Origin: Vicinamibacteraceae bacterium
GTDB taxonomy: Bacteria; Planctomycetota; Phycisphaerae; Phycisphaerales; UBA5793
Assembly (NCBI GenBank): GCA_011525805.1
Contig: WYBR01000125.1
Location: forward strand, 1 to 32,107
DNA: 32,107 nt
Reading direction: 5' to 3'
This document shows, piece after piece, positions 8,726 through 29,126 of this stretch. The translations under genes and the position numbers were made by a program. Below the pieces are notes generated by a model. That model was not told the origin of the DNA. It was given only the letters and a program-made list of their open reading frames with translations, and made no database searches. Each line of letters starts with the position of its first letter. The first letter of the stretch is position 1.

Positions 8726-9670
8726 TCACTCCGGCCCGATGTCGCGCAGGCTCAAGCCGAGTTCGCCGAGTTTGTCGCGGACTTCGACGAGGCTGGTCGT
8801 GCCGAAGTTCTTGACGCCCAGCAGTTCCGCTTCGGTGCGGGCGCAGAGGTCGCCGATGGTCTGCACGTCGAGCAGTTGCAGGGCCTTGCGGGCGCGGACG
8901 GAGAGTTCGAGGTCGGAGACGGGCTTGTTGAGCAGGTGCTCCTGCGGCGTGCCGCGGAGTTGCTCGTAGACGGCGTTGCGCAGCACGTTGTGCTGCTCGT
9001 CGAGCCCTTGGCCGAGGCGCAGGCCGCGGGCCGTGAGCATGTCCTTGATCTCCTGGAGGCTCGTCTCGCCGAAGTTCTTGTAGCCCAGGAGTTCCGCTTC
9101 GGTGATGCGCAGCAGATCGCCCAGCGACCGGATGTTCATCTTCTTGAGGCAGTTGCGGGCCCGGACTGAGAGTTCGAAGTCGGTCACGGGGGTGTCGAGC
9201 ATGGCGTTGCGCTTGGTGGCGTCGCGCTCGATCTCCTCATCCACTTCCATCTCGAAGGACGCCTCGACGTCCTTCATGTAGCGCAAGGCGCGGGCGTGAT
9301 TCGGCACGGTCTCGAGAACCTGGCGCAGGCACTTCTCGGCGCGGCGGTACATCCCGCGGTCTTCGTAGCAGATGGCGAGGTTGATGAGGGCGTTGACGTG
9401 CGCCGGCTGCTGCTCGACGCATCGCTCGTACATGGCGAGGGCCTCTTCCTCTTCGCCGACCAGGTCGAGGGCGTAGGCGAGTTTGAAGAGGGCTTCGGGG
9501 TTTTCGGGGTCGAACTGGACGCTCCGCCGGAACTCCTGAATCGCCGCCCACCGGTTGCCGGTCCGCTCCGCGTTGCAGGCGGCCACGAAGTGGTCGCGGC
9601 TCGCCTGCGGGTCGCGCGTCACCGCCTGCCCGGAAGAACCGATCAGAATATCCATCACGTCCTGCGCCAT
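8726..9670 (-). CDS. TPR protein with two tandem RNA polymerase alpha C-terminal domains
   Basis: A 314-residue cytoplasmic protein. Residues about 24-130 form roughly three TPR repeats. An acidic linker follows (about 139-150), then two copies of the RNA polymerase alpha-subunit C-terminal domain at about 158-219 and 247-308. The first copy (ELSVRARNCLKKMNI ... GETSLQEIKDML) keeps the residues matching E. coli R265 and N268, which contact UP-element DNA. The second (ELSVRARKALQLLDV ... GTTSLVEVRDKL) keeps the arginine but has lysine at the N268 position. There is no polymerase assembly domain, so this is not RpoA itself. I know such proteins only from planctomycetes and relatives. A role in binding promoter DNA or activators is an inference. 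The ATG at 9670 opens the protein; a TATGAT box lies about 80 bases upstream. Confidence 0.9.
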   Translation of the reverse strand: MAQDVMDILIGSSGQAVTRDPQASRDHFVAACNAERTGNRWAAIQEFRRSVQFDPENPEALFKLAYALDLVGEEEEALAMYERCVEQQPAHVNALINLAICYEDRGMYRRAEKCLRQVLETVPNHARALRYMKDVEASFEMEVDEEIERDATKRNAMLDTPVTDFELSVRARNCLKKMNIRSLGDLLRITEAELLGYKNFGETSLQEIKDMLTARGLRLGQGLDEQHNVLRNAVYEQLRGTPQEHLLNKPVSDLELSVRARKALQLLDVQTIGDLCARTEAELLGVKNFGTTSLVEVRDKLGELGLSLRDIGPE

Positions 9671-10444: not shown

Positions 10445-13400
10445 TCAGCCGCCTTCGCGCACCTTGTCGCGATACACCTGCGCGTCCGCCGGGCGATTGA
10501 GTTGCTCGTAGCAGCGGACGAGTTCGCCCAGCGCCTCCTGAGTGAATCCATCGTCGAGTCCGAGGGTCGCTTCAAGCCCCTCGCAGGCGCGCCGGAGTTC
10601 GACTTCAGCCTCCTCGAAGCGATCAAGTTCGCGGAGGACTCGCCCGTAGCGACCGTGAATGAACCAGCGTTGCCAGTTGTCCTCCCCCAGCGACTTGTCG
10701 GCGGCGGAGGCGGCGGCGGCGAGCCAGGGCGCGGCCTCAGAGAGTCGGCGGGCGTCGCGATAGAACGCCGCGAAGTTGTTGCGGGCGAAGATCGCCTCGG
10801 GATGGTTCGGGCCGTAATGCGAGTCGAGCGATGCGATGACTTCGAGGTGCAGACGCTCGGCCTCATCGCCCCGACCCAGTTTCTCCAACAGGTCCGCCAG
10901 TTCCTGCTTGACCCGGAGCGACTCAATCGCGTGCTCTCCGTAGAGGGACTCGCGGTCGCGCAGCAGGTCCATGTACGCCTGCTCCAGTTCAGCGTTCTGG
11001 CCGGTGCTGGCGAGCATTCGGATGCGAGTAAAGATGGCGAACTGCGAGGCGGGATGATCGCGGCCGAGCCGCTCGGACGCGACCGCCACAATCTCATCGA
11101 GCAGGGAGGCGCAGCGGGTGTCCTTCCGCTCAAGCATCGCCGCCGCCAGGTTGGTCGCAAAGATGACAGTATCCGGGTGGTGCGGGCCTAGAGTGTTTCG
11201 CGCCCGTGGCAGCAGCGGGTCGAGGAGGCTCACGACCTCCTCAAAGCGTTGCTGCTCGAGCAGCCATTGCCCGTAATTGTTCGCTGCCGCGAGCGTGACA
11301 TAACTCTCCTCGCCCCACTGCGACTGCGCCGCCTCATAGGCCTCGCGCAGCAGGCGCTCCGACTCGGCGATGTCGCCCGAGGCCAGCAGCCCGTGGGCGT
11401 AGTTGGCGGTAACGGAGACGGTCTCCTTGCCGAAGCCTCCCTCGCGGGCGCGGTGGGCGGCGATCGTCTCGCGGAAAATGGCGAAGGCGTCCTCGAAGCG
11501 CTGCTGGAACACTCGCAGCGAAGCCACGTCGTTGCCGAATTCCAGCGTGTGCTGGTCCGACTCTCCGTAGCGGCGGCGCTGCGCCTGCCACGCCGTGGTC
11601 AGCAGTTCATCCGCCTCGTCGAGCGCACGCTGGTGGAGGCGCACCAGCCCGAGGGCGTTCATCGCCAGCAGGGTCGTGCGCGCCTCGGGGCCGTCGAGCC
11701 GCTTGAGGTCTTCGAGGGCTTGCGCGATGAGGCGCTCGCCCTCGTCGAGGATGCCGATGCTCAGGTAGAGGCTGCCGAAGGTGGAGCGGAGCGCCGCCGC
11801 GAGGGCTGGCTCGTCCTTCAACTCGACGTCGAGGCTCGCCGCCGCCGGATCGAGCACCTGCACGACGCGGGCGTGGCGGCCGAGTTCGTTGACGCGCGCC
11901 GCCACGAACATGTCGCGCAGGTAGTTCACGATGCGCCGGTTCTTCTCCGACTCGATCTCCGCGAGGCGGCGCAGGTCGCGCTCGCGCACGAGCCCGACGC
12001 CGACGAGGCCCAGCAGCGCCGCGAGGACGATGATCGCGGCGAGGCTCAGCCGCATGAACCGCTGCCGCCGCTCCGCCTTGTCGCGCGCCTCGATCTGCGC
12101 GTGCCGCTCGCGCCGGCGGCGCGGCAACTGCTCGAGGCGCTCGGCCAGTTCATCCGCGGTGCGCAGGCGGCGCGACGGATCCCCCTCGACGCACCTGGAG
12201 ATATCCTCGCGCAGCAGCGCATCGTCGATGTCGCGCTCCCACCCGACCGCCAGCGGGCGCTCGAGATCGGCCACGATCAACTGGTAGAGGAGCACGCCCA
12301 GCGCGTAGATGTCCCCCTGCACCGTGAACGCCTTGCCGATGAGCATCTCCGGCGGCGCGTAGAGGCGCGTGCCGGTGCGGCTCGACTCGTTCTCCGAGAG
12401 AAGACCGGTGAATCCCGTCATGGTGATCTGCCGGGCGTCGAGGGCCGTCCGGTCGGCGAGGATGCCGATGCCGAAGTCGGCGAGGCGCGGCCGCGGATCG
12501 CTGCCCTTGGTCTGCTGGATGAGGATGTTCGAGGGCTTGATGTCCTTGTGGAGCACGCCGACGGAATGCGCCGCGGCGACGGCGCGGGCCGTGCGCGCCG
12601 CGAGGTCAAGGCGCGTCGCCACCGGCACCTGGGCCAGCCCCCCCTGCTGCCTGGCCCAGTTGTTCAGGTCGCCCGCCTCGGTGAACTCGACCTCGAGGAA
12701 GTACGGCGCCCTCTCGAGTTGAACCTCGTACAGCCGGGCGATGTCGTCCCGGTCGCCGAGAACCTCGCGCAAGACGCGAAAGAGCGTCAGTTCGCGCTTG
12801 AGGGAGCGCAGACGGTCCTGGTCAAAGCAGAACTTGAAGGCGCGGTGGACGCGGGTTTTCTCGTGCGTACCGAGCCAGACTTCGCCGAATCCGCCCTCGC
12901 CGATGCGCTTCTCGAGTTTCCAGCCCGGCCGCGTCGGCACTTCCAGACCCGTGGCGGGACGCCAGCCGAGCGTCTCATCCTGTCCCGGCGCGACCGCCCG
13001 CTGGGCCTTCTCCGAGTCGCGCGGCGCCCGCAGGGGCGACTCGCCCTGCGCCCCGACCTCGAACACCTCCAGAGGCTCGTCCGTGCCCTTGAAGCGATAA
13101 GGTCCGTGCGCCATCCACTGAATCGTGAGTAACCGCCCGTCGGACGCCGGAGGATGCTTGCGGACGTATTGCCGGGCGCTGTCGAAGAGGGCGCGCGTCA
13201 GCAGAATCTGCCCCCCTTCGGCGAGGCCCATGATGCGGGCGGCCAGGTCGATCGCCAAGCCGGAGAGTTTCGCGCCCCCCTGAGGGTCCGCCTCAAGTTC
13301 CGAGACTTCGCCGAGGTGCAGGCCGATGCGGACGTGCAGCGGCGGCCCAGGCCAGGGCTCGCGCCGCAAGGCGTCCTGAAACAGGAGGGCGAAACTCACG

Positions 13401-13621
13401 GCATTGCTGACGGTATTGAAGCGGGCGAGGAAGCCGTCCCCCGTGTCCTTGAGAATCTCCCCATCCCCGACCGCGTCGAAGGTCCGGCGGAACAGGCGGT
13501 CGTGCTGCGCAATGATCTGCGCGGCCTCGGCGTCGCCGAGCCGGCTCTTGAGTTCCACCGAGCCGACGATGTCCGAGAAAAGCAGGACAACGAGGCGCGT
13601 GATGGTCGTGGTTTGGGACAT
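10445..13621 (-). CDS. Class III nucleotide cyclase - Ser/Thr kinase - TM - TPR fusion protein
   Basis: A 1058-residue signalling protein. Residues about 10-190 form a class III adenylate/guanylate cyclase domain with FSDIVGS (metal Asp D17), KDTGDGF (second Asp D62) and VRIGLHLGEV. Residues about 234-500 form a Hanks-type kinase with glycine loop GEGGFGEVW (241-249), likely ATP lysine K263, catalytic HKDIKPSN (358-365; HKD in place of the usual HRD), DFG (382-384) and APPE (422-425). One membrane segment (about 525-545) leads to a long TPR region (about 600-1058), probably outside the cytoplasm. Kinase-TM-TPR proteins are common in planctomycetes, and the added cyclase is the unusual part. 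The start ATG follows GGGAG, and a TTGCTG-17-TACGCT promoter lies upstream. Confidence 0.92.
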   Translation of the reverse strand: MSQTTTITRLVVLLFSDIVGSVELKSRLGDAEAAQIIAQHDRLFRRTFDAVGDGEILKDTGDGFLARFNTVSNAVSFALLFQDALRREPWPGPPLHVRIGLHLGEVSELEADPQGGAKLSGLAIDLAARIMGLAEGGQILLTRALFDSARQYVRKHPPASDGRLLTIQWMAHGPYRFKGTDEPLEVFEVGAQGESPLRAPRDSEKAQRAVAPGQDETLGWRPATGLEVPTRPGWKLEKRIGEGGFGEVWLGTHEKTRVHRAFKFCFDQDRLRSLKRELTLFRVLREVLGDRDDIARLYEVQLERAPYFLEVEFTEAGDLNNWARQQGGLAQVPVATRLDLAARTARAVAAAHSVGVLHKDIKPSNILIQQTKGSDPRPRLADFGIGILADRTALDARQITMTGFTGLLSENESSRTGTRLYAPPEMLIGKAFTVQGDIYALGVLLYQLIVADLERPLAVGWERDIDDALLREDISRCVEGDPSRRLRTADELAERLEQLPRRRRERHAQIEARDKAERRQRFMRLSLAAIIVLAALLGLVGVGLVRERDLRRLAEIESEKNRRIVNYLRDMFVAARVNELGRHARVVQVLDPAAASLDVELKDEPALAAALRSTFGSLYLSIGILDEGERLIAQALEDLKRLDGPEARTTLLAMNALGLVRLHQRALDEADELLTTAWQAQRRRYGESDQHTLEFGNDVASLRVFQQRFEDAFAIFRETIAAHRAREGGFGKETVSVTANYAHGLLASGDIAESERLLREAYEAAQSQWGEESYVTLAAANNYGQWLLEQQRFEEVVSLLDPLLPRARNTLGPHHPDTVIFATNLAAAMLERKDTRCASLLDEIVAVASERLGRDHPASQFAIFTRIRMLASTGQNAELEQAYMDLLRDRESLYGEHAIESLRVKQELADLLEKLGRGDEAERLHLEVIASLDSHYGPNHPEAIFARNNFAAFYRDARRLSEAAPWLAAAASAADKSLGEDNWQRWFIHGRYGRVLRELDRFEEAEVELRRACEGLEATLGLDDGFTQEALGELVRCYEQLNRPADAQVYRDKVREGG

Positions 13622-20979: not shown

Positions 20980-22479
20980 ATGCCTGCTGAGAAGTTGATG
21001 GCGCACAGCGTTTTACGAACCGTGGCGGCTCTGGCGGTGGCGGCGGGAGGCCTGACCCTTCTGGCGACTCGGCAGACCGACGCCCAGGTGATCACCCTCG
21101 GCGCCTCCTCGCGGGCTCCGGCCCGAGCCGGCGGCGTCACGGACCGCGACCGCGATGCCCTGATCTCAACACTCGGCCTCGACAAGTCGCAGGAAGAACT
21201 GGTCCGCGCGCTGCACGAGGGCCATCGGGCGGCGTGGGACGAGGCGCGGGAGGCGCACCGCGAGCAGACGCAGGCGACTTTTCAGGCCGCCAAGGCGAGC
21301 GGCGACTTCCAGTCGCTGGGCCCAAAGATGCGCACCGCGCAGCAGGAGTGGATGAGGCAGAGCGATGCGCTCGAAGCAGAGTTCTTCACCAACGTGAAGA
21401 GCCTGCTCAGCGATGACCAACTGGCTGCCTGGCCGCGGTTCGAGCGCGACCGCCGCCGACGCACGCTCCTGGCGACCCAGTCGCGCCTCAGCGGTGAAGG
21501 AGTCGATCTCATCGACGTCGCCGACTCGATCGACCTTGCCGCGGAAACGCTCGCGCGGCTCGAGCCCGTCTCCGAGCAGTACGCGAGTGAAGCGGATCTC
21601 GGAATAGCCGAGCGAACTCGCGCCATCGAGGCCGTCGAGAAGGCGATGGAGCCCGCGATGGAGGGTTCACCTGAGGAAGTCGATCCGGCGGCGATCGAGG
21701 AACTGCGTCTCAAACTCCACGGCCGCCGGCTCGCGCTGCGCGATCTGCACGCCCGCTACGCCACGCTCTTCGAGTCGCATCTCACCGAGCAGCAGGCCGC
21801 GAGTTTCCGTGAGCAGTTCAGGCTCCGGTCCTTCCCGCGGATCTACCGCCCCACGGCCGCGGACCGCTACCTCGAGCAGATCGAAGGCCTCGACTCGCTC
21901 AACGAAGAGCAGCAGCGCGCCCTGGCAGGATTGTCGGGCGACTTCGGTCGGCAGGTCGGTCTGATCAACGATCAACTGGCTGAGATCGTGCGCTCGGAGG
22001 AGGAGTCGCCGCCTGGCGCCGGCGGGTTCTTCGGCGAGGGTCCGAGCGGCATGATCTTCGGCGATGAGGCCGGACCCCAGATCGAGTTGGATGCGGGCGA
22101 GAGCCAGAGCGCCGTGCTCGTGATGCGCTCCGAATTGGTTGCCGCCCCGCCGCAGCCGGGCGTGCGAACCACGCGCCCCGAGCCGGCAACGCCCCAGATC
22201 TTCACTTTCGGAGCACCGGCGGAGGACGAAGACTCGCCGCGAGGCAAACTCAGCCGCTCGAAGCGCGACCTCGTCTCCCGGACGATCGAGTCCGCTTACG
22301 CCCTGCTCACCCCCGAGCAACAGGCTCTGGCGCCCAAGCCCGATGACGACCAGCGGCTTTCACCCGAGGAGCGAGTGCAGCACCGCCTCCGCAGGGTGCT
22401 CGAAGGAGCGGTCATCGAGACTTCCGGCGAAGGCGGCCAGAACATCACCATCACCGTCGAATCGTCCGAGGACAAGTAA
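20980..22479 (+). CDS. Secreted helical protein with LTxxQ-like motifs, paralogue 1
   Basis: A 499-residue protein with a signal sequence at about residues 9-35 (VAALAVAAGGLTLLA, then TDAQ). The rest is charged and helical, with probable coiled-coil stretches. Four short motifs recur in order: LSDDQLAAW, LTEQQAASF, LNEEQQRAL and LTPEQQALA, resembling the LTxxQ motif of Spy/CpxP periplasmic chaperones, although this protein is much longer. It aligns by eye along most of its length with the next gene (shared YxPTxADRY, LGLDxSQ and LLTPEQ...APKP). A Gly/Glu-rich insert near residues 345-420 is private to this copy. GGAG seven bases upstream supports the ATG at 20980. A role in the periplasm in protein folding or stress is an inference only. 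A strong terminator follows at 22520. Confidence 0.78.
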   Translation: MPAEKLMAHSVLRTVAALAVAAGGLTLLATRQTDAQVITLGASSRAPARAGGVTDRDRDALISTLGLDKSQEELVRALHEGHRAAWDEAREAHREQTQATFQAAKASGDFQSLGPKMRTAQQEWMRQSDALEAEFFTNVKSLLSDDQLAAWPRFERDRRRRTLLATQSRLSGEGVDLIDVADSIDLAAETLARLEPVSEQYASEADLGIAERTRAIEAVEKAMEPAMEGSPEEVDPAAIEELRLKLHGRRLALRDLHARYATLFESHLTEQQAASFREQFRLRSFPRIYRPTAADRYLEQIEGLDSLNEEQQRALAGLSGDFGRQVGLINDQLAEIVRSEEESPPGAGGFFGEGPSGMIFGDEAGPQIELDAGESQSAVLVMRSELVAAPPQPGVRTTRPEPATPQIFTFGAPAEDEDSPRGKLSRSKRDLVSRTIESAYALLTPEQQALAPKPDDDQRLSPEERVQHRLRRVLEGAVIETSGEGGQNITITVESSEDK

Positions 22480-22519
22480 CGGCTCCTCCGGCAGACTCCC
22501 AAAATCGATCCCGTTTCCC

Positions 22520-22547
22520 CAGCGCCGGACTGCCTGGTCCGGCGCTG
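22520..22547 (+). terminator. Rho-independent terminator
   Basis: CAGCGCCGGAC and GTCCGGCGCTG form a perfect 11-bp stem with loop TGCCTG, followed by TCATTTTCT. It lies 40 bases after the stop of the first paralogue and separates it from the second, which therefore probably has its own promoter. Confidence 0.88.
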
Positions 22548-22575
22548 TCATTTTCTCGGCCCGCTCCGCGGCAAT

Positions 22576-22614
22576 AGGGGCAACCCCTCTTCGTTCGACC
22601 GGTAGCAGAAGAGG
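22576..22614 (+). other. Two mutually exclusive hairpins in the leader of paralogue 2
   Basis: AGGGG-CAA-CCCCT (22576-22588) and CCTCTTC...GAAGAGG (22586-22592 with 22608-22614) share bases 22586-22588, so only one can form fully. The region is about 60-100 bases before the ATG at 22675. Confidence 0.35.
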
Positions 22615-22674
22615 TGGATTTTGGACCGGCGGACCCGCAAACGGCTCCACCGGGCACTGGAAAGGACAATCCTC

Positions 22675-24033
22675 ATGAACCTCTCGAGTTGGTATCGCAG
22701 CGTGGCGCGATGGAGTTGTACGGTCGTGATCGGAGCGCTCGCAGTGGTCGGCGCCTCGACAGCGCCGGCCCAGATGGGCGGATTCGGCGGGGCGAACTTC
22801 CGTTCGCCGCTCAGCAGCGGCGAAGTGGATCGCATGATCGAAACCCTCGGCCTGGATGAGTCCCAGGCATCGCTGGTCAAGTCCCTCTACGAGGGCTTCA
22901 GCGAGTCCTACGAGGCGGCCTCCGAGGAGGCCCGCGGACGGATGCGCGAGTCCTTCCGCCAGATGCGCGAGAGCGGCGAGTGGCAGGGCGCGGCCTCGGT
23001 CGGCCTCAACGCCGGGCGCGAGTGGCAGAAGCAGAGCACGGGCCTGGTGCAGTCCTTCTTCGCCGACGTCCAGACGGTGCTCACGAAGGAGCAGCAGGAA
23101 CAGTGGGACCGGTACCAGCGAGAGTGGCGCCGCCGCAGTTCCTTCCGCGGCGGCAACCAGCCCGGCGCGCTCGCGGGCGAGAACATCGACCTCGTCGAAC
23201 TCGTCGAGGAAGTCGACCTGACGGACGAGGAGTACGACGCGCTCGACCCCGTGCTCGAGGCCTACTCCATCGAAATCGACCCAGCGCTGGCGGCGCGCGA
23301 TCGCGCCTTCGATGACATGACCAGCCTCACCTCGGCCGTGCTTGAAGGCAAGTCACCGGTCGAGGACCTGGAGTCGAAGTTCAAGACGCTTCAGCGGTCG
23401 CGGGTATTGGTGCGCGACGTGAACGACCGGTACGCTCAGCACCTGGCCGCGCACCTTTCGCCTGAGAAGGGCGAGGCGATTCAGCGCGAGTACCGCCGGC
23501 GGAGTTTCCGCGGCATCTACTCCCCCACTCTCGCGGACCGCTACTTCGAGACGGTGCGCGAGCAGGCGACCCTCACCGAACCGCAGATCAACGCGCTCCA
23601 GATGGTCGAGCGGGACTTCCTCACGCAGAGCGACGCAATCAACCGGCAACTCGCCGACCTGCAGAAGAAGCGCGAGATCGACGACCAGCAGCGCATCTTT
23701 GACCGCATGACGATGATGGCGCGGGGCGGATTCGAACGCGGCCAGGGCCGCGGCCCCGGCGGGCCCGGCGGCTTCTTCGGCGCCGAAGCGCAGGACGACC
23801 CTCGGCGGACGCTCATGCAGCAGAAGAACGACCTCGTCGAGAACACGCTCAACTCCGTCGTCGCCCTGCTCACCCCGGAGCAACTTGCCGCCGCGCCCAA
23901 GCCCGAGCGGCGCCAGGCGCGCGGGGGCGATCGCGGGGGCCGCGAAGTGACCGACGAGCAGCGGCGCGAGATGGAGCAGCGCTTCCGCGAACGCCGCGAG
24001 CGCGGCTTCGATCGCGACGACGGCGGCAACTGA
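22675..24033 (+). CDS. Secreted helical protein with LTxxQ-like motifs, paralogue 2
   Basis: A 452-residue protein. A signal peptide covers about residues 1-33 (CTVVIGALAVVGAS core, APAQ cleavage). It is the tandem relative of the gene just upstream: LTKEQQEQW, LSPEKGEAI, LTEPQINAL and LTPEQLAAA occupy the same places as the four motifs there, and SFRGIYSPTLADRY matches SFPRIYRPTAADRY. A Gly/Arg-rich patch (GRGPGGPGGFFG) lies near residues 365-380, and the C-terminus is a long Arg/Glu tail. AAAGGA eight bases upstream supports the ATG at 22675. As for its partner, the LTxxQ-like motifs hint at a periplasmic chaperone or stress protein, but the family is not one I can name. A terminator follows at 24071. 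Confidence 0.78.
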   Translation: MNLSSWYRSVARWSCTVVIGALAVVGASTAPAQMGGFGGANFRSPLSSGEVDRMIETLGLDESQASLVKSLYEGFSESYEAASEEARGRMRESFRQMRESGEWQGAASVGLNAGREWQKQSTGLVQSFFADVQTVLTKEQQEQWDRYQREWRRRSSFRGGNQPGALAGENIDLVELVEEVDLTDEEYDALDPVLEAYSIEIDPALAARDRAFDDMTSLTSAVLEGKSPVEDLESKFKTLQRSRVLVRDVNDRYAQHLAAHLSPEKGEAIQREYRRRSFRGIYSPTLADRYFETVREQATLTEPQINALQMVERDFLTQSDAINRQLADLQKKREIDDQQRIFDRMTMMARGGFERGQGRGPGGPGGFFGAEAQDDPRRTLMQQKNDLVENTLNSVVALLTPEQLAAAPKPERRQARGGDRGGREVTDEQRREMEQRFRERRERGFDRDDGGN

Positions 24034-24070: not shown

Positions 24071-24097
24071 AAGGTCCTCGCCCCGCGCGAGGACCTT
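24071..24097 (+). terminator. Hairpin terminator
   Basis: AAGGTCCTCG (24071-24080) and CGAGGACCTT (24088-24097) form a 10-bp stem, followed by TCTGTTG. It lies between convergent genes ending at 24033 and 24115 and mainly suits the plus-strand gene. Confidence 0.8.
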
Positions 24098-27254: not shown

Positions 27255-28475
27255 TCAGCGCCGGTCGGAGGCGACGATGCGCACGGGGATGCGGACGACG
27301 GGTTCGGTGAAGGCCCGGGCCGCCGCGAGCCGCGCTTCGTCGAACCGGACCGCCGGATCGAGCCACCACAGCAGGACCCGGTCCCAGCGCGTCGCGTGGG
27401 GCAGATTGGGTGCGGCCAGGTCCACGAGCATCCGCGGCGCACCCGAACCCGACCACGAGATTCGCAGCGAGCGATCCGCGGAGACGTCGCGCAGCGCCGC
27501 GAGGATGTCCGAAGGCGTGCCGAGAATCGTAAAGCGAAAGCCCCGCGCGACGTAGCGCGACTGTTCCGCGATCGGGATGCGATCGTCGGGCGCGGCCGGT
27601 GGCGCGGCCGCGGGGCGCGGCGAGGGCGCCTCGCCCGCGTCGATCGATTCGTCGGCCCGCCCGGGAATCTCGGCGAGAGCGGGGAGGCTCCGCTCCGGCC
27701 CAGTCAGCGGCGGCGCCGGATTGATCGAGGCGTTGACGATGAAGTCGGCGCCGGCGAGCCTCACCCGCGACGCGATGGCTTCGTATGCGGCCTCGGGGTC
27801 GGCGCTGGAGATGCTGGCGAACAAGTCGAGATCGTTGGGCCAGTCCCGATCGATCGACGCGGCCACGAGCGACTCGTCGCGCTCACTCATCGCGGTAACC
27901 AGCGCCTCGAACGCGCCGGGCGCGGCGGCGCCCGGATCAGCCGCAGGTGACGCAATCGCGTCGCTCTGGGCGAGCGCTTCGGCCGCCGCTTCACCCTCGC
28001 CGCGCGTATCCGCCGACGACTCAGGCCCGGCGGGCCTGAACTCCGGCTCGGCGGGGCCGCGCGCCACCGGCTCGGGCGCGAAATGCTCGTCGTGCGAATC
28101 GAATAGCAGGGAGTTGAGCAGCATGAATCCGCCGCCGGTGAGGAGCAGAACGAAACCCGCGGCCGCGGCGTAGCGCTGCCAGTGCGTCGCGCGGTAGCGG
28201 CGCAGATTGATGGAGGGGGCGACGAGATCAGTCTCGAGCAGCATCGACCGCTCGATCTGTGCCAGCACATCCGCCGCCAGCGTGGCCGGCGCCTGCGGCT
28301 CGGGCAGCGCACACAGCGCCTGGCGGTCCGCTCGCATCTGCCGCAGCGACGCGAGGAGTCGCGCATCCGACCCCGCCTTTGCTTCGAACTCCGCTTCATG
28401 CTCGCGCGTCATCGTCTGCTCGACGTAGGCGAGCAGCGTGGCGTCATCGAAACTCGAAGTGGTGCGGTGTTCCAT
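27255..28475 (-). CDS. Probable membrane anti-sigma factor
   Basis: A 406-residue protein. The N-terminal 80 residues are helical and begin FDDATLLAYVEQTM...HEAEFEA, typical of the cytoplasmic domain of anti-sigma factors. A single membrane segment follows (about 102-124), then a long Pro/Ala/Glu-rich external linker and a folded C-terminal part (about 305-400). The zinc motif HxxxCxxC of ZAS anti-sigma factors is absent. Its place 18 bases after an ECF sigma gene in the same direction supports the call: such pairs hold the sigma factor at the membrane until a signal releases it. The ATG at 28475 is chosen; a GTG nine bases upstream is also possible. The signal sensed is unknown. Confidence 0.75.
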   Translation of the reverse strand: MEHRTTSSFDDATLLAYVEQTMTREHEAEFEAKAGSDARLLASLRQMRADRQALCALPEPQAPATLAADVLAQIERSMLLETDLVAPSINLRRYRATHWQRYAAAAGFVLLLTGGGFMLLNSLLFDSHDEHFAPEPVARGPAEPEFRPAGPESSADTRGEGEAAAEALAQSDAIASPAADPGAAAPGAFEALVTAMSERDESLVAASIDRDWPNDLDLFASISSADPEAAYEAIASRVRLAGADFIVNASINPAPPLTGPERSLPALAEIPGRADESIDAGEAPSPRPAAAPPAAPDDRIPIAEQSRYVARGFRFTILGTPSDILAALRDVSADRSLRISWSGSGAPRMLVDLAAPNLPHATRWDRVLLWWLDPAVRFDEARLAAARAFTEPVVRIPVRIVASDRR

Positions 28476-28493
28476 GAATCTCACCGGCCTTGT

Positions 28494-29126
28494 TCACGGG
28501 GCGACCGATCGGGCCGCGGGGCGCTCCAGGTCCTGCATCGCCTTTCGCAGCGCCACGCGCGCCCGAAAGAGCCTGCTCTTGACCGTGCCCAGCGGCAGTC
28601 CGATCACCTCCGCGATCGTCTCGTAGTCCAGATCGCGCCCGTCGCGGAGGACGAGCAACGTCCGGGCTTCATCGCCCAGTTCATCCAATGCCCGCAGCAG
28701 GATGGCCCGCTGCTCGGTAGTTTGGACGCTTTCCTCGCCGCCCGGTTCCCTTGAAGGCGCAGAATCGGGCCAGGGCCCCTCGCCTTCGGGCTCCCGGCCG
28801 ACGGCGCTGCTCCCCGCGGCCCGGGCGGTCCGCCGGCGCCGAAGGTGCGAAATCACGGTATTGACGGCAAGGCGGTACACCCACGTGGAGAGGGACGACC
28901 GCCCGTCGAAGCCGCCCAGACCGGTCAGGAACTTTGTGAGAACCTCCTGGGTGAGATCGGCCGCGTCGTCGCGCTGGCCGAGCATCCGGCTGCACAGCCC
29001 GAAAACCCGCTGGCGGTAGGCCTCGAGGAGGATCCCCATGGCGGCCGCGTCGCCGGCCCGGGCCCGGGCGATCAGGCGGGTCTCGTCGCTGTTGCGGTCG
29101 GATTGTGTCTGGTCTGCTCGATTCAC
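28494..29126 (-). CDS. ECF-type RNA polymerase sigma factor
   Basis: A 210-residue sigma-70 family protein of the extracytoplasmic function type. Region 2 (about 25-97) reads [27 protein letters not shown] and ends in ISHLRRRR. A disordered Gly/Glu-rich linker (about 100-135) leads to region 4 (about 140-200), with [24 protein letters not shown], the helix-turn-helix that reads the -35 box. No region 3 or 1.1 is present, as expected. The start is GTG (29126), preceded by AGGGG. It is divergent from purB, 93 bases apart, and followed by its probable anti-sigma partner. I did not find a matching promoter copy in front of it, so self-regulation cannot be shown. Confidence 0.93.

What the first reader, a model, noticed from the sequence alone, without database searches (positions are those of the whole stretch)
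20980..24033. Tandem pair of long secreted helical proteins with repeated LTxxQ-like motifs
Two adjacent genes encode exported proteins of 499 and 452 residues with the same four LTxEQ-like motifs in the same order and the shared YxPTxADRY phrase. Spy/CpxP chaperones use LTxxQ motifs but are about 160 residues long. This looks like an expanded, lineage-specific family, duplicated in place and separated by a terminator, which suggests separate control.
Basis: partly seen in the sequence, partly recalled or inferred. Interest (0 to 1): 0.5.

Follow-up and report, generated by a model that had tools for sequence, protein, structure and literature searches.

The report
Triple Spy-like exported protein pair
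Two neighbouring planctomycete genes encode exported-looking proteins built from three Spy/CpxP-like helical units in a row, belonging to a family whose core member leads the operon of a protein-export machine (type II secretion), which hints at an unrecognised chaperone or adaptor for protein secretion.

Summary
Two exported-looking helical proteins (499 and 452 aa, 33% identical) share four LTxxQ-type motifs in order, with a terminator-like hairpin between their genes. Neither reaches Pfam's LTXXQ cut-off, but the family profile matches planctomycete LTXXQ domains three times in succession; reversed and shuffled controls stay at 3% or less. AlphaFold shows three four-helix units in each protein, closest to CnrX, with CpxP and Spy among the matches for the first. 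They are Spy/CpxP-type units in triplicate.

'Duplicated in place' is not supported: the genes are not sister copies (AU p = 0.010), although all five sampled genomes of the genus keep the pair. Separate control is supported: the hairpin, plus a conserved 34-bp motif before the second gene.

The main new result lies outside the window. In all 47 genomes (of 101 sampled in the order) with a strong family match, one member directly precedes gspE of a type II secretion operon, in tandem copies in nine. The window pair are unlinked paralogs. Best guess: periplasmic ATP-independent client-binding proteins, the operon member serving type II secretion cargo. Architecture and linkage are shown; function is inferred. 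The conserved ligands expected of a metal sensor are absent.

The parts
20980..22479 (+). Gene A: exported-looking protein, 499 aa, three LTXXQ/Spy-like units; two short strands near the C-terminus in a region of very low confidence
21136..21480 (+). Gene A unit 1 (aa 53-167)
   Evidence: helices H55-65, H69-107, H113-140, H145-149, H151-167 in the model; STV 5io8 Z 10.2 over 51-159, CpxP 3qzc Z 8.2 over 60-170, Spy 6owz Z 8.0 over 63-158
21502..21834 (+). Gene A unit 2 (aa 175-285)
   Evidence: CnrX 4wwf Z 11.7, rmsd 2.1, 108 aligned, range 165-286
21856..22344 (+). Gene A unit 3 (aa 293-455), interrupted by a low-confidence insert (aa 346-414)
   Evidence: aligned with unit 3 of B
22520..22547 (+). 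intrinsic-terminator-like hairpin between A and B
22571..22604 (+). 34-bp conserved motif GCAATA-N5-AACC-N4-TYCGTT-N3-CCGGTA, 70 bp before the start codon of B; probable promoter or operator
   Evidence: exact before B in all 5 sampled genomes of the genus; the only match at up to 3 mismatches in the own genome
22675..24033 (+). Gene B: exported-looking protein, 452 aa, three LTXXQ/Spy-like units
22810..23142 (+). Gene B unit 1 (aa 46-156)
   Evidence: hhalign to LTXXQ 97.1%; CnrX 4wwf_B Z 10.5, rmsd 3.5, 106 aligned, range 45-154
23176..23529 (+). Gene B unit 2 (aa 168-285), motifs degenerate
   Evidence: hhalign to LTXXQ 86.3% within the full protein, 93.7% alone; CnrX 2y3b Z 10.5, rmsd 2.3, 108 aligned, range 158-279
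23530..23922 (+). Gene B unit 3 (aa 286-416)
   Evidence: hhalign to LTXXQ 96.0%; weak ZraP hits in this region (E 0.16 NCBIfam; E 0.0088 PDB 3lay)
24073..24095 (+). hairpin GGTCCTCG..CGAGGACC followed by TTTCTGTT after B, possible terminator
   Evidence: sequence and own script; not listed by the terminator scan

Best explanation
A and B are exported, probably periplasmic, proteins made of three tandem LTXXQ (Spy/CpxP/CnrX-type) four-helix units: units 1 and 3 keep both LTxxQ motifs, the middle unit is degenerate. They are paralogs, away from the operon, of a protein that is encoded first in a type II secretion (T2SS) operon in much of this planctomycete order. The most likely mechanism is ATP-independent binding of unfolded or folding client proteins on the helical cradles, three per chain, so that one molecule can hold an extended client. 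The operon member would hold or hand over T2SS cargo (or pseudopilins) in the periplasm; A and B would do the same for other clients under their own control. Shown: architecture, fold similarity of models, family, operon linkage, separate regulatory elements. Inferred: export by signal peptide (read by eye), client binding, role in T2SS.
For: Three in-register matches of the 44-row family profile to a planctomycete LTXXQ profile (97.1, 96.0, 86.3%); with that profile reversed 3.0%, best of 60 column shuffles 0.6%. Units match each other (94.0-97.1%; reversed at most 11.4%). 7 of 44 members, A among them, match Pfam LTXXQ at E<=0.01, best 9.2e-7; 2 match Metal_resist. AlphaFold models with three four-helix units (B pLDDT 77.6, pTM 0.68; A 70.9, 0.63); best PDB matches CnrX, then STV and NccX for B, CnrX, STV, and lower down CpxP and Spy for A. 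A bridging single-unit ORF, L159 5558-6406, is over Pfam's LTXXQ cut-off (34.2 against 24.3 bits) and matches the family profile at 1.9e-13. T2SS linkage in 47 of 47 genomes with a strong family match; in the own genome the operon has T2SSE, T2SSF, T2SSG, T2SSJ, T2SSK and Secretin Pfam matches over their cut-offs. T2SS cargo helped by periplasmic chaperones is known (LipH/Lif, Skp; search listing only).
Against: Neither protein reaches Pfam's LTXXQ cut-off (17.4 and 16.8 against 24.3 bits), B is not among the 7 of 44, and the family profile against PDB sequences found no Spy, CpxP or CnrX. Foldseek E-values are poor (0.5 or worse), and the tool warns that Z of 8-13 can arise among unrelated helical bundles. 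There is no activity or secretion data. A and B are not linked to T2SS. Both precursors are acidic overall (D+E 84 against K+R 59 in A; 76 against 63 in B).
Confidence: 0.42

Rival explanations
1. Secretion-machine part: the operon member is a structural or adaptor subunit of this T2SS subtype (contacting secretin N-domains, pseudopilins or the inner-membrane platform), and A/B are spin-offs of other function.
For: It stands before gspE in 47 of 47 genomes, with a 4-base stop/start overlap in 6 and a gap of at most 179 bp in all; some longer apparent overlaps come from gspE starts called too early. The 47 genomes are exactly the 47 with the best GspE matches.
Against: Many copies elsewhere (4 copies in the own genome; up to 18 matches at E<=1e-5 in G368) fit a soluble helper better than a fixed machine part. 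Of 11 genomes whose best GspE is 51-55% identical, 10 were looked at and none has a family gene upstream; G445 was not fetched.
Confidence: 0.22
2. They are themselves cargo of the T2SS, ending up outside the cell or on its surface.
For: Exported-looking proteins in multiple diverged copies, some far from the operon, as is usual for cargo.
Against: Cargo is not usually the constant first gene of the machine's operon (my knowledge); no surface anchor seen by eye. Nothing tested localisation.
Confidence: 0.15
3. Metal-binding stress sensors or scavengers like CnrX/ZraP, acting with a sigma factor or two-component system.
For: Best structural matches are CnrX; weak ZraP sequence hits for B; in one related genome (L155) two short LTXXQ-like ORFs and an ECF sigma gene stand before gspE.
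Against: No conserved metal ligands: over the columns present in B, the best His column holds 20%, Cys 11%, Met 36% of 44 members; no membrane anchor apart from the signal peptide (by eye); no sigma gene adjacent to the pair (ECF sigma 28494-29126 lies 4.5 kb away with other genes between).
Confidence: 0.08
4. General envelope-stress holdases (Spy-like) with no functional tie to T2SS; the operon link is historical.
For: Fold and motifs; the window pair has its own hairpin and conserved upstream motif.
Against: The linkage is kept in 47 of 47 genomes of 4 sampled families of the order.
Confidence: 0.13

Closest known systems
Pfam PF07813 LTXXQ family (Spy, CpxP, ZraP)
   Same: Two LTxxQ motifs bracketing a helical hairpin, four-helix unit, exported
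   Different: Three units in one chain (about 450 aa instead of about 160, the latter recalled); the middle unit has lost the Gln of its motifs in most members; scores of A and B below the curated cut-off
CnrX / NccX (Cupriavidus metal-sensor periplasmic domain)
   Same: Closest solved structures to units 1 and 2 of B (Z 10.5) and unit 2 of A (Z 11.7)
   Different: Single unit; the conserved His/Met/Cys ligands expected of a metal sensor (recalled) are absent here
E. coli Spy
   Same: LTxxQ motifs and helical unit; Spy is an ATP-independent chaperone that forms a cradle-shaped dimer (PMC4791398, passages read)
   Different: Spy is a dimer of one-unit chains; here three units are covalently joined, and dimerisation is unknown
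Type II secretion system operons (gspE-F-G-H-I-J-K ... D)
   Same: The operon beside the family's core member has GspE, GspF, GspG, GspJ, GspK and secretin matches
   Different: No known Gsp component is an LTXXQ-type protein (recalled); the window pair is not in that operon
Lipase-specific foldase (Lif/LipH) and Skp acting on T2SS lipase
   Same: Working analogy: periplasmic helper of a T2SS cargo before export (search listing with starts of abstracts)
   Different: No sequence relation tested; LipH is cognate to its lipase and membrane-anchored (same listing)

Membership tests
Pfam LTXXQ (PF07813) | score of 24.3 bits or more | tested here: not met
   A 17.4, B 16.8 bits. Among 44 members, the pair included, 7 match at E<=0.01, best 9.2e-7
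Pfam LTXXQ (PF07813) | homology of the unit to LTXXQ domains by profile comparison | tested here: met
   97.1, 96.0 and 86.3% for three successive stretches; reversed 3.0%, column shuffles at most 0.6%. Cyclic shifts of the profile, which keep long blocks in order, still score up to 97.9% and are no null
Spy/CpxP chaperones | two LTxxQ motifs per unit | tested here: met
   met in units 1 and 3, degenerate in unit 2
Spy/CpxP chaperones | four-helix fold of the unit | tested here: met
   by predicted models only: CnrX Z 11.7, CpxP Z 8.8 and 8.2, Spy Z 8.0 for A; CnrX Z 10.5 for B. Such Z values are below the 13 that the tool advises for helical bundles
Spy/CpxP chaperones | one unit per chain, about 160 aa (recalled) | tested here: not met
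   three units, 452-499 aa
Spy/CpxP chaperones | cradle-shaped dimer and ATP-independent chaperone activity | not testable with these tools
   needs purified protein
CnrX/ZraP metal sensors | conserved metal ligands (His, Met, Cys) | tested here: not met
   best His column 20%, Cys 11%, Met 36% of 44
Type II secretion component | encoded in the T2SS operon | tested here: met
   met for at least one family member per genome in 47 of 47 genomes; not met for A and B themselves
Type II secretion component | needed for secretion | not testable with these tools
   needs a deletion strain

The most novel reading that the evidence does not exclude
A previously unrecognised constituent of type II secretion: a triple-unit Spy-like periplasmic protein that much of one planctomycete order makes together with its T2SS, acting as a multivalent cargo holdase or adaptor, and that has radiated into off-operon copies, such as the window pair, with clients and control of their own.
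Probability: 0.33. Interest if true: 0.75.

Novelty: new variant of a known kind. Interest (0 to 1): 0.55.

Why it matters
How T2SS cargo is kept competent in the periplasm, and which accessory factors the machine has outside Proteobacteria, are open questions (my knowledge of the field). A protein that stands before gspE in every sampled genome with a strong match to the family, and is built from known chaperone-type units, gives a direct, testable candidate. The tandem fusion of three Spy-type units also offers a natural test of how multivalency changes an ATP-independent chaperone.

Tried and rejected
Simple family look-up: Pfam and NCBIfam give only sub-threshold hits, and the LTXXQ model finds nothing in the own genome at E<=0.001. 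The A2 profile against PDB sequences gave no Spy/CpxP member; the best was a helical 'ice-binding protein TIP-99a' at E 0.035. Foldseek E-values were all above 0.1, and for A the top three rows are other helical proteins. Spy and CpxP are not among the 50 rows shown for B. No Rfam family reaches its gathering score in the window.

Duplication in place: rejected as a simple history (A+B as one clade p-AU 0.0103; A+B+L091 p 0.0185; B+L091 not rejected, p 0.187). I had seen two earlier trees before this test, and some branches are long; in the larger quick tree the fork that puts A with the other paralogs has only 83%.

Metal sensor: disfavoured for lack of conserved ligands. A function for the unlinked copies from their neighbours: no neighbour recurs at a fixed place across families; the one cluster shared by 8 loci of two families lies at differing distances and on either strand.

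Literature (PMC library only): LTXXQ with Planctomycet, 0 papers; at least three of Spy, CpxP, tandem, LTXXQ, 13, listing only; type II secretion with Phycisphaer, 4, listing only; type II secretion with LTXXQ, 2, listing only, titles on other subjects; LTXXQ with cradle, 1, passages read; type II secretion with planctomycet and pseudopilin, 5, of which one, PMC13274419, was read in passages; Spy chaperone with type II secretion system, 0; at least three of CnrX, CpxP, ZraP, Spy, 8, listing only. None seen describes an LTXXQ protein in a T2SS operon.

Rows dropped: 8 of 30 LTXXQ loci whose flanks were cut. Not every match was fetched for the 44-row set. ORFs under 340 aa were left out of the 97-row tree, among them both pieces of the split G393 gene. 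One row (L113 5636-6961) was labelled unlinked although it precedes gspE; that gspE start was called too early. Genome searches scored only a limited number of candidates per genome (4, 5 or 16) and cut their place lists.
Full report
What is there. Gene A (20980-22479 +) and gene B (22675-24033 +) encode 499 and 452 aa. They are 33% identical over 341 aa (E 1e-51) with a second matching block near the end. Both begin with what reads as a signal peptide (by eye). A terminator-like hairpin lies at 22520-22547; shuffles give such sites at least as often (1 found, 2.1 expected). At the same place in the relatives the hairpin is good in L040, has a weak T tail in L034, and is poor in L041.

What the proteins are built of. 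Pfam LTXXQ is hit below its cut-off by both (17.4 and 16.8 against 24.3 bits). I assembled 44 distinct family members, the pair included. Scanned singly, 7 of 44 match LTXXQ at E<=0.01 (best 9.2e-7); no other family is matched by more than 2. I built a separate LTXXQ profile from 22 of 30 planctomycete loci found with the Pfam model. The family profile matches it three times, along nearly the whole domain: B residues 49-152, 294-414 and 172-273 at 97.1, 96.0 and 86.3%. With that profile reversed the best match is 3.0%, and in 60 column shuffles 0.6%; cyclic shifts, which keep long blocks in order, still score high and are no null. The three units match each other at 94.0-97.1%, reversed at most 11.4%. 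I set the unit limits by reading the motif positions. Units 1 and 3 keep both motifs (Q64 43 of 44, Q140 44, L300 41, Q304 34, L399 44, Q403 41); unit 2 has lost the Gln in most members.

Fold. AlphaFold2 with a four-row alignment gives for B (pLDDT 77.6, pTM 0.68) and A (70.9, 0.63) three repeats of four helices (short, long, long, shorter) at those limits; unit 3 carries a low-confidence insert. VIA-align ranks CnrX first for both (Z 10.5 for B; 11.7 for A), then STV and, for B, NccX; for A also CpxP (8.8 and 8.2) and Spy (8.0), after one unrelated helical protein at 10.0. The tool warns that helical models can reach such Z by common arrangement, Foldseek E-values are weak, and a profile search of PDB sequences found no family member. 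I rely on the sum of profile, motif and fold evidence.

Who has it. The own genome has four copies: A, B, one on contig C6 and one on C19. One sequence (B) finds relatives in 17 of 392 genomes of the phylum, all in the own order. With the profile, 57 of 101 sampled genomes of the order have a match at E<=1e-5: in 47 the best is 1.1e-82 or better, in 10 it is 1.6e-11 or worse; the one of these 10 whose place I saw, G185, covers a single unit. In 294 genomes across the phylum, 10 match at E<=1e-8: 6 in the order with full-length members, G185, and three outside the order that cover only unit 3, in frames of 177-214 aa (5 candidates scored per genome). The triple protein is thus found in part of one order, as far as sampled. 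LTXXQ matches as such are common in the phylum (55 of 199 genomes at E<=0.001).

The operon link. Clustering neighbours showed the same genes next to many members. In the own genome the C19 copy is followed by genes with Pfam matches over cut-off to T2SSE, T2SSF, T2SSG, T2SSJ and T2SSK and, further on, a secretin. GspG is over its NCBIfam cut-off; GspE, GspF, GspJ, GspK and GspD are the best-scoring NCBIfam models for the others but below their cut-offs. Three genes in between, which look like GspL/M/C by position and shape, matched nothing. I fetched one candidate region or more for each of the 47 genomes. In 47 of 47 a family gene stands directly before gspE on the same strand, at most 179 bp away, with a 4-base overlap in 6. 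GspF and GspG matches follow in 46; in the 47th (G420) the contig ends inside gspE. Six genomes have three tandem copies there and three have two; a tenth, G393, has one copy split over two frames. A GspE search over the same 101 genomes shows these 47 as exactly the 47 best (E<=3.0e-188); the next are at 55% identity or less. In 15 gspE-like loci of genomes outside the 47, 14 have no family or LTXXQ gene before gspE on its strand (L152 has a weak LTXXQ match, E 0.002, on the other strand more than 3 kb off); one (L155, G397) has two short LTXXQ-like ORFs with an ECF sigma gene beyond. Not all 15 need be T2SS: four show no GspG match (L154, L157, L158, L160).

History of the pair. The pair is present in all 5 sampled genomes of the genus (L034, from a record named as a planctomycete, fits G396 by contig number and position). 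In the four whose neighbourhoods were compared it lies between homologs of the same genes, the window's DUF4097 gene and rnc. In a careful tree A groups with the C6 and L141/L143 paralogs (99/99), apart from B, and holding A and B together is rejected (p-AU 0.0103); earlier trees agree with less support (97/88; 83). The tandem placement is old and may be secondary.

Control. Upstream of B lies a 34-bp motif, 70 bp before its start codon. I drew it from the window and three loci, L034, L040 and L041. It is the only match at up to 3 mismatches in the own genome, with none for the reversed pattern. In five other genomes it is exact before B in G303, G372 and G396, from which it was drawn, and in G394, which was not used but is a near relative of G372. 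A 3-mismatch match in G393, of another genus, lies about 180 bp before the stretch that matches the family in one of its two unlinked members fetched (L091), though inside the longest possible ORF; one further 3-mismatch match lies elsewhere in G396. A and the other paralogs tested have no such motif. Its layout resembles an ECF-type promoter (recalled), which is untested.

Reading. The units are Spy/CpxP-type, so a client-binding cradle is the most likely working part, and three per chain suggests multivalent holding. The strict operon link points to the periplasmic stage of type II secretion. A cargo helper, a machine part and cargo itself all remain open; the metal-sensor reading is disfavoured for lack of conserved ligands. 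For A and B the likely role is the same activity on other clients, under their own control.

Noticed in passing
window 8726-9670 -: 314-aa protein joining TPR repeats to two RNA polymerase alpha C-terminal domain matches (PF03118 E 1.9e-41), an unusual-looking fusion.
   Followed up: no
window 10445-13621 -: 1058-aa protein with Ser/Thr kinase domain, TPR repeats and an N-terminal guanylate-cyclase match (E 7e-6).
   Followed up: no
window 27255-29126 -: ECF sigma factor followed by a 409-aa protein with a probable transmembrane stretch (by eye), possibly its anti-sigma.
   Followed up: no
L155 7348-11429 -: In a family of the order without the triple protein, gspE is preceded by an ECF sigma gene, a possible anti-sigma, an LTXXQ/Metal_resist ORF (176 aa) and a second ORF with weak LTXXQ similarity (241 aa): a possible precursor state.
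   Followed up: partly
L085 1539-4185 -: Downstream of the own T2SS operon, four secreted-looking proteins of 134-337 aa sharing a CPG...WxxAxP phrase; candidate T2SS cargo (by eye).
   Followed up: no
L046, L131-L136, L144 (family f5): A second, unlinked family member of 557-730 aa recurs in f5 genomes, in four of these eight loci followed by a related gene of 265-308 aa.
   Followed up: partly
L137, L138, L139: A second tandem pair of more diverged family members in three f2 genomes, with no gspE in the stretch fetched.
   Followed up: partly
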